Notes under the pieces: model-generated
Seen by the model: the letters and a program-made list of their open reading frames with translations, nothing else
Told to the model about the DNA's origin: nothing
Databases searched by the model: none
Shown here: positions 1 to 950 of the stretch, piece by piece
Layout: each line of letters begins with the position of its first letter
How positions within the stretch are numbered: the first letter of the stretch is position 1
Translations under genes and position numbers: made by a program
NCBI GenBank assembly: GCA_026708685.1
Contig: JAPOUL010000101.1
Span: forward strand, 1-36,550
Origin: Bacteroidota bacterium
GTDB lineage: Bacteria; Bacteroidota; Rhodothermia; Rhodothermales; Bin80
DNA length: 36,550 bases
Direction of reading: 5' to 3'

Positions 1-495
1 CACGGATCGTTTACCCTCTTTTTCGTGCTTCACCCACTTAAAAAACGGAAGCCCCCTAATGTTAGATATGGATTGTGACTCAGTAATATCATGATATAGA
101 TCCACCACTTCCTGAGAGGGAACAATATCTATGCGGTCTATTTCTTTGTAACTTGAACTATAAAATGTTGCTTCTTGTAAGAAGTATCCGGTAAGAGTAT
201 ACAGGGTATCTCCTATAATGAGTTGATCCTGATACTTCACAAATGCCAACTCCTCTGATTGAATAAAGTATTGGTACACTAAATACTGCATGAGAGCCTC
301 ATGGATCAGAATAGGTGCACCGTAAAGCGATAATTTTCGGTAGTCATAGTCGGTAGATGTATTAGATCTAAATCGCTTGATCGGCTGTTGATAGTCATAG
401 AACTCAAATGGGGGGGGGGGACTCCCTACCAACAGCATCCTTTCAGAGATTTGACCCAACTTCGCCATATTCGTACTCAAGTTCTTGTTGATCAT
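1..495 (-). CDS. Unrecognised protein, 5' part only (runs off left edge), contains poly-proline from an 11-C tract
   Basis: A minus-strand frame is open from the first base of the window to at least base 783; it has no stop because the gene leaves the window. I chose the ATG at 495, which gives 165 codons beginning MINKNLSTNMAKLGQ. In-frame ATGs at 585 and 732 are alternatives; the 585 start would add a hydrophobic, cysteine-rich N-terminus that could be a signal or membrane segment, but the DNA there is AT-rich and looks non-coding. The product is rich in Tyr, Gln and Ser and has no motif I recognise. Codons about 26-29 are encoded by a run of 11 cytosines (PPPP followed by FEFYDY). With 12 C the frame stops two codons after the tract; with 10 C it stops about 36 codons further on. 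Coding status is inferred from the long open frame and plausible composition; the function is unknown. Confidence 0.6.
   Translation of the reverse strand, partial: MINKNLSTNMAKLGQISERMLLVGSPPPPFEFYDYQQPIKRFRSNTSTDYDYRKLSLYGAPILIHEALMQYLVYQYFIQSEELAFVKYQDQLIIGDTLYTLTGYFLQEATFYSSSYKEIDRIDIVPSQEVVDLYHDITESQSISNIRGLPFFKWVKHEKEGKRSV
410..420. repeat. Homopolymer of 11 G (C on the coding strand)
   Basis: Eleven consecutive G on the plus strand lie inside the minus-strand frame at the left edge. Tracts this long are prone to slipped-strand mispairing. The assembled length keeps the frame open, and a change of one base either way ends it. It could be a phase-variation tract or a homopolymer length error. 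Confidence 0.9.
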
Positions 496-950
496 AATCT
501 TCACTAAACAGCCCAGGACCTGAACAACTCCGTAATACACAATGCTACAACAAGAACTACATGAAACGATAAAATAACTGTTCATTATAGTACAATGAAT
601 GTGACCATGAAAATTGTTGAGAAGCAAAACAATTAGAAAACGTACGCTTATACCAACGTTTTTACTATAGTTCCGAAATATTTCGCAAATTTGAAATCTT
701 AACAGAAAATTAACATTTAACTGCAAAAACATACATTCATTCGGACTTTCGATCTCTATTAAATCATAATTCGTGATATGTCTACTCCTTCATGTTCACC
801 GCGTGAAACGTAACATTGCAAATGATGAACCATCGCAGAGCTACCAATAAAAAGCATAGTCAACATTTGAAACCATACCCGTTCACTTGAGTAGAATGGG
901 ATTTGTTGCAATTTTCATTAACATTTTGAACCAAAATTCATTGATTTCGG
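496..950. other. AT-rich intergenic region between divergent genes
   Basis: No plus-strand gene is visible. The minus strand stays open from 783 into the left-edge gene, so part of this stretch may be an N-terminal extension, but its composition suggests leader DNA. A weak plus-strand promoter candidate lies at 867-897. No tRNA, repeat or terminator was seen. Confidence 0.5.
867..897 (+). promoter_or_regulatory. Candidate sigma70-like promoter for the TPR protein gene
   Basis: TTGAAA at 867-872 and TAGAAT at 892-897 are separated by 19 bases, slightly longer than optimal. A start near 905 would leave a leader of about 45 bases before the ATG at 951. Bacteroidota-type organisms often use a different -7 element, so this is weak. 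Confidence 0.3.

What the first reader, a model, noticed from the sequence alone, without database searches (positions are those of the whole stretch)
1..585. Possible phase-variable gene with an 11-C coding tract at the left edge
The minus strand is open with no stop from base 783 to base 1, and an 11-base C run sits about 25 codons after the preferred start. Reading it with 10 or 12 C stops translation within about 36 or 2 codons, so slippage would switch the gene off. Long homopolymers inside otherwise non-repetitive coding sequence are typical of contingency loci but uncommon in this group of bacteria. No other run this long was noticed in the window.
Basis: partly seen in the sequence, partly recalled or inferred. 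Interest (0 to 1): 0.55.

Follow-up and report, generated by a model that had tools for sequence, protein, structure and literature searches.

The report
Slippery G-tract in a broken gene
The 11-base G/C run is real and of the kind that lets bacteria flip genes on and off, and this uncultivated bacterial group is full of such runs in restriction-modification and surface genes, but the particular gene carrying this one is a decayed fragment cut off by a mobile element, so here the switch most likely controls nothing.

Summary
The 11-G run (window 410-420; C11 on the minus strand) and the long open minus frame are real. The gene reading is not what was proposed. Window 1-55 is the end of a multicopy mobile element (12 other copies at contig ends), so the frame's last 18 codons are not gene. 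The rest is a remnant of a ~360-residue lipoprotein-type gene that sits, in three same-genus genomes, just before a TonB-dependent receptor and a DUF4249 gene. Upstream of the tract the conserved residues lie in a different frame, with three stops and a 24-base deletion; downstream another conserved stretch is out of frame. Intact relatives need no frameshift. So this is very probably a pseudogene.

The suspicion of phase variation is right for the organism. Its Rhodothermales genus is rich in G/C tracts of 10-16: of 72 examined, 24 lie in or beside restriction-modification/DNA-methyltransferase genes and 12 in surface-type genes, with lengths differing between homologous loci and frames both on and off. 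Unexpectedly, 38 of the 72 have an A-run (A4+) directly 5' of the G-run, against 1.9% of short G-runs. That genus-specific signature is the most interesting result; the window tract carries only a weak version (AAAT).

The parts
410..420 (-). 11-C homopolymer tract (G11 on +), preceded on the G strand by CAAAT
   Evidence: Direct reading; longest G/C run in the window
1..55 (-). End of a multicopy mobile element (GGGGCTTCCGTTTTTTAAGTG... read outward on the minus strand), cutting the gene remnant
   Evidence: Identical 55 bases at 12 other contig ends, always read outward, with unrelated flanks, some inside other genes (HerA-like ATPase, Calx-beta protein; names from reading)
56..409 (-). Remnant of the lipoprotein-type gene downstream of the tract, mostly in the open frame
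   Evidence: 42-44% identity to G009 and G002 homologues, E 1e-21 and 2e-20
421..574 (-). Remnant of the conserved N-terminal part (signal-peptide-like region, LFSEDYDQQELEYEYGEV, KDAVGRE) in another frame, with TAG, TAG and TGA
   Evidence: Score 51 against homologue N-termini; 0 of 500 dinucleotide shuffles reach it, maximum 45; frames
443..445 (-). TGA stop inside the conserved N-terminal frame
   Evidence: GSNL*KDAVGRE; seven codons between it and the tract
165..188 (-). DTSYKKQH, a conserved stretch (S-Y-x-x-x-H) in a third frame
   Evidence: Frameshift-aware alignment to all four homologues
421..431 (+). ACTCCCTACCA, equal to the first 11 bases of the transposon end that adjoins G-runs elsewhere in the family; chance resemblance not excluded

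Best explanation
The tract is a poly-C run of the contingency type, of which this Rhodothermales genus has many, but it lies in a pseudogene. The gene was a ~360-residue exported lipoprotein-type protein, first of an apparent operon with a TonB-dependent receptor and a DUF4249 protein. In this genome it has several frame lesions and stops, and a mobile element cut off its 3' half. The long open minus frame is a patchwork: an unrelated frame upstream of the tract, the old coding frame downstream, and 18 codons of the element. Shown: the tract, the repeat at the edge, the frame lesions, the intact relatives. Inferred: that the gene is dead, and that the tract arose by slippage-driven expansion as at the other loci.
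For: Homologues in G009, G002, G001 are 357-362 aa and intact; the receptor and DUF4249 genes follow them. Frameshift-aware alignment: window piece 4, 4 and 2 frameshifts against three homologues (one stop in the first), against 0 for every same-genus comparison and the C76 paralogue. Upstream conserved segment out of frame. Codon usage over 510-421 is better in the ancestral frame (0.106) than in the open frame (-0.249); true genes average 0.192 in frame and -0.208 off frame. Element end at 1-55. Same-genus homologues have no G/C run above 4.
Against: A given frame staying open for the 123 codons upstream of the tract has probability about 0.0002 (any frame 0.0004) in composition-matched sequence; for the 55 codons from the ATG 0.019 and 0.058. 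That could mean the open frame is used; it was picked for being open, so the number overstates. Within the open frame there is a hydrophobic start with a lipobox-like VLGC. The two G014 copies (another genus) also show 2 frameshifts or 1 stop, so broken copies are not unique to this genome or the alignment method can err between genera. Single-assembly sequence; no reads seen.
Confidence: 0.8

Rival explanations
1. A live phase-variable gene that is on with 11 C, translated from the ATG 25 or 55 codons before the tract.
For: Open frame through the tract; long openness unlikely by chance; phase variation is common in the genus.
Against: Conserved N-terminus in another frame with three stops; upstream codon usage not coding-like; a third-frame conserved stretch downstream; truncated by an element end.
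Confidence: 0.08
2. The tract marks a junction or scar of a transposon whose end sits directly beside G-runs: G-run then ACTCYCTACCATTTATGCAAG. The element landed at, or left, a G-run in the gene.
For: TGGTAGRRAGTCCCC occurs 43 times in 16 family genomes against 1 for the reversed control, and the window tract is one of two matches in its genome; elsewhere it is a repeated element end beside G4-G12, or C10-C15 in further loci.
Against: Only 11 bases match, and homologue coding DNA at that spot (GATGCTGTTGG-AGGGGAACC) already resembles it.
Confidence: 0.15
3. Neutral homopolymer growth from lost mismatch repair, without selection.
For: Some tracts sit in or beside housekeeping genes (ribonucleotide reductase, folD, ftsY/pgsA), and this one sits in a dead gene.
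Against: MutS and MutL are found without stops in 10 of 10 genus genomes; 24 of 72 tracts are in or beside R-M/DNA-methyltransferase genes, while none of the 25 Pfam families listed for 58 control ORFs is one (most single-member families not shown).
Confidence: 0.1
4. Assembly artefact (poly-G reads, contig-end error).
For: Contig edge; one draft assembly.
Against: The tract lies 355 bases inside the element boundary with coding homology on both sides; tracts recur at the same codon in five type ISP genes in three genomes.
Confidence: 0.03

Closest known systems
Poly-G/C contingency loci (phasome) of Campylobacter
   Same: G/C runs in R-M and surface genes with in-frame and out-of-frame states. 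Passages of PMC6321876 report poly-G/C as the commonest repeat type in Campylobacter and R/M groups among the variable genes.
   Different: Here the bacteria are uncultivated Rhodothermales; [quoted passage not shown] and an A-run precedes the G-run at 38 of 72 tracts.
Type ISP restriction-modification enzymes (LlaGI, LlaBIII)
   Same: Tract-bearing protein L049 matches LlaGI 5ffj (E 1.9e-153) and LlaBIII 4xqk (E 2.9e-125).
   Different: Five copies here carry a G10-G14 tract at one conserved site in the C-terminal specificity domain.
Lipoprotein-type gene before a TonB-dependent receptor and a DUF4249 gene
   Same: The window piece (55-468) is homologous over about 130 residues.
   Different: The window copy is broken and truncated; the family itself matches no Pfam model.

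Membership tests
Simple-sequence contingency (phase-variable) gene | Long homopolymer beyond chance | tested here: met
   G11; 0.008-0.014 expected per window
Simple-sequence contingency (phase-variable) gene | Tract joins two parts of one otherwise intact gene, so length switches the product | tested here: not met
   Homologous parts either side are in non-joining frames, with stops, and the gene is truncated
Simple-sequence contingency (phase-variable) gene | Tract length differs among cells or strains | not testable with these tools
   No reads or second strain; for other tracts in the genus 17 of 21 homologous pairs with both flanks aligned differ in length
Lipoprotein-type gene of the TonB-receptor/DUF4249 operon | Sequence homology to the family | tested here: met
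   E 1.1e-21, 2.0e-20 and 1.6e-16 to same-genus copies
Lipoprotein-type gene of the TonB-receptor/DUF4249 operon | Intact signal peptide and full-length frame | tested here: not met
   Signal-like region out of frame with two TAG stops; 3' half not found
Mobile element end (window 1-55) | Same end at many unrelated sites | tested here: met
   12 further copies at contig ends, different flanks
Mobile element end (window 1-55) | Transposase and target-site duplication | tested here: inconclusive
   Contigs stop 55 bases into the element; the flanks printed show no obvious duplication pairs by eye

The most novel reading that the evidence does not exclude
This genus has evolved a compound slippage cassette: an A4-A7 run, up to two other bases, then G8-G16, placed in either coding orientation in unrelated restriction-modification and surface genes, giving a large phase-variable epigenome and surface in bacteria outside the usual pathogens. 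The A-run is part of the mechanism (for example raising slippage or being recognised by a protein), not a by-product of coding, and a transposon uses the same tracts as landing sites.
Probability: 0.3. Interest if true: 0.75.

Novelty: new member of a known kind. Interest (0 to 1): 0.45.

Why it matters
The single gene matters little. The setting matters: poly-G phase variation of restriction-modification and surface genes is known mainly from host-adapted pathogens (recalled; passages on Campylobacter in PMC6321876), and no paper holding 'phase variation' with 'Rhodothermales' or 'phase variable' with 'Rhodothermaceae' was found in the held library. At least one relative is a sponge symbiont (bin80 of Aplysina aerophoba, accession MPNB, PMC5649159, passages), and that paper reports enrichment of restriction-modification genes in sponge symbionts. 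A genus-wide set of switchable methyltransferases would make epigenetic and surface diversification of animal symbionts testable from existing reads, and the A-run/G-run signature poses a direct question about what makes tracts slip.

Tried and rejected
Pfam on the fragment and on three intact homologues: no family; solved structures with the homologue profile: best E 0.067, no usable match. AlphaFold model of the family: mean pLDDT 32, unusable, so no fold search was made. The C76 3' half was first taken as the missing half of the gene; rejected, because it overlaps homologue residues 145-188 already present in the window piece with a different sequence: it is a paralogue also cut by the same element. 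Lost mismatch repair rejected. Naming the G-run-adjacent transposon: the inner ORF looks IS110-like from memory, but no Pfam search was left and the solved-structure search found nothing, so the name is untested. Literature: (search listings); passages read in PMC2831843, PMC6321876, PMC5649159; all others seen only as listings.

Limits of the counts: 72 tracts were examined of 114 runs of 10+ counted in 10 genus genomes: all 12 own, 16 G009, 13 G002, 15 G004, 5 G007, 1 G003, 2 G001, 8 of 20 G005, none of 20 in G006 (7 of them crowded in one 340-base stretch) and none of 10 in G008. Pfam was run singly on pieces beside 53 of the 72 (9 own, 44 others) plus the window fragment; 16 others and own L047 and L053 had no piece scanned singly. 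The control listing shows only the top 25 of 118 families, so single R-M hits among the 58 controls cannot be excluded; PADLOC gave mad2 in 2 of 58 against 13 of 74.

Full report
The observation. The window holds 11 G at 410-420 and the minus strand is open from about 785 to base 1. It is the only G/C run longer than 7 in the window, and runs of 11 or more are expected 0.008-0.014 times per window from Markov models of order 1 to 4. The window is contig C71 of a 3.83 Mb draft genome in 170 contigs, which has 12 G/C runs of 10 or more against 3.4-5.7 expected from the window's composition. Named members of the same genus are Rhodothermaceae/Rhodothermales metagenome assemblies, one of them bin80 of the sponge Aplysina aerophoba (for the record titles, for the paper; the equation of G009, G002 and G001 with those records rests on equal contig lengths and positions).

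The left edge. Bases 1-55 recur at 12 other contig ends of this genome, always read outward and always followed by different sequence. At two of these ends a long open frame of another gene runs into the repeat. This is the end of a multicopy mobile element, so the frame from 54 to 1 is not part of the gene and the contig stops because of the repeat. The element's interior and transposase were not recovered.

What the gene was. Homologues of window 55-468 are found in 3 of the 9 other genomes of the genus at E below 1e-15, and twice in G014 of another genus; of the 59 genomes searched 10 have any match at E up to 1, most of them weak. The three same-genus copies are 357-362 residues, begin with a lipoprotein-type signal sequence, and are followed by a TonB-dependent receptor with a carboxypeptidase-regulatory domain and a DUF4249 gene. 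They match no Pfam model and have no G/C run above 4; the longest in the two G014 copies and the paralogue is 6.

Why this copy is broken. A frameshift-aware alignment needs 4, 4 and 2 frameshifts against the three homologues (with one stop in the first), while all same-genus comparisons and the paralogue on C76 need none; the G014 copies need 2 frameshifts or 1 stop. The conserved segment before the tract (LFSEDYDQQELEYEYGEV, then KDAVGRE) scores 51 against homologue N-termini, above all of 500 shuffles (maximum 45), and lies in a frame that has TAG, TAG and TGA and lacks 24 bases. At the present length the tract does not join that frame to the conserved frame that follows it. Farther on, DTSYKKQH (165-188) sits in a third frame. 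Codon usage over 510-421 favours the ancestral frame. Against this, the open frame's 123 codons upstream of the tract are unlikely to be open by chance (about 0.0002-0.0004), which I cannot fully explain beyond the fact that the frame was selected for being open.

The other tracts. In this genome tracts of 10-13 lie in or beside a type I-like methylase gene, two type ISP genes, a type III-like mod gene, a glycosyltransferase, a Calx-beta type gene, fibronectin III genes and others. One ISP copy is in frame at G10 and its paralogue out of frame at G11. Over 72 tracts in 8 genomes of the genus, 24 are in or beside R-M/DNA-methyltransferase genes (4 of 12 own, 5 of 16 G009, 4 of 13 G002, 3 of 15 G004, 3 of 8 G005, 2 of 5 G007, 1 of 1 G003, 2 of 2 G001) and 12 in or beside surface-type genes by Pfam (the counts are mine from those tables). 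Five type ISP genes carry the tract at the same place in the specificity domain with lengths 10, 11, 11, 11 and 14; two are in frame, three out. Among 21 pairs of homologous tract loci with both flanks aligned up to the tract, 17 differ in length, for example G14/G10 and G16/G11 with about 90% identical flanks. These are consensus sequences of different species or paralogues, not cells of one population.

A signature. On the G strand, 38 of the 72 tracts have four or more A within two bases 5' of the G-run, 27 as A4+T exactly. Among 2,208 G-runs of 4-7 in the same held DNA the figure is 43. After grouping homologous loci, 17 of 37 groups have it, and 10 of 29 loci without a relative. It occurs with G on the coding strand (14 of 21) and with C on the coding strand (20 of 35). 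AAAAATG8 occurs 70 times in the 10 genus genomes against 1 for the reversed pattern, 6 times in the other 6 genomes of the family, and 3 times in the 98 other genomes of the order. MutS and MutL are present in 10 of 10 genus genomes. The window tract has only AAAT before it. I found no print mention, but only the searches were made.

A second G-run context. In G014, 6 of 20 tracts are the edge of a repeated element, and the pattern TGGTAGRRAGTCCCC occurs 43 times in the family against 1 control match. In 28 of the 29 loci listed (window copies excluded) the bases after the G-run are ACTYYCTACCAT, the end of a transposon directly beside G4-G12 (the 29th reads ACTCCCTACCAG). In two loci (L231, L239) A-run plus G8 is directly followed by this end, and L224 and L239 align on their outer flank with tract loci lacking the element (L131, L136, L137), consistent with insertion at the tract. 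The window tract is followed by ACTCCCTACCA, 11 matching bases, but the homologues' coding DNA already resembles this, so I leave it open.

Verdict. Observation confirmed. Interpretation right in kind for the organism and very probably wrong for this gene. Interest is moderate because of the genus-wide system, not the gene.

Noticed in passing
Genus loci L039-L056, L106-L165 and window (72 tracts): A4+ run directly 5' of long G-runs in 38 of 72 tracts, in unrelated genes and both coding orientations; AAAAATG8 is nearly confined to this genus.
   Followed up: partly
L049, L054, L107, L130, L138: Five type ISP restriction enzymes carry a G10-G14 tract at one conserved site of the specificity domain, two in frame and three out.
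   Followed up: yes
L220-L249, L201-L217, window 410-431: Transposon end ACTCYCTACCATTTATGCAAG directly beside G4-G12 runs in the family; two cases sit on an A-run/G8 tract. Family of the transposase untested.
   Followed up: partly
G000:C76 (L033), both ends: A paralogue of the window gene is also cut by the same element and is followed by its TonB receptor; the missing halves of both genes were not found in the genome.
   Followed up: partly
G006:C3:10118-10451: Seven G/C runs of 10+ crowded into about 340 bases, unlike other tracts; possibly an assembly oddity.
   Followed up: no
L037:2137-3189: A tyrosine-recombinase-like ORF (label from reading only) begins about 90 bases after a 21-base copy of the window-edge element end.
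   Followed up: no
L158: An in-frame G11 tract within a ribonucleotide reductase gene, an unexpected place for a switch.
   Followed up: no
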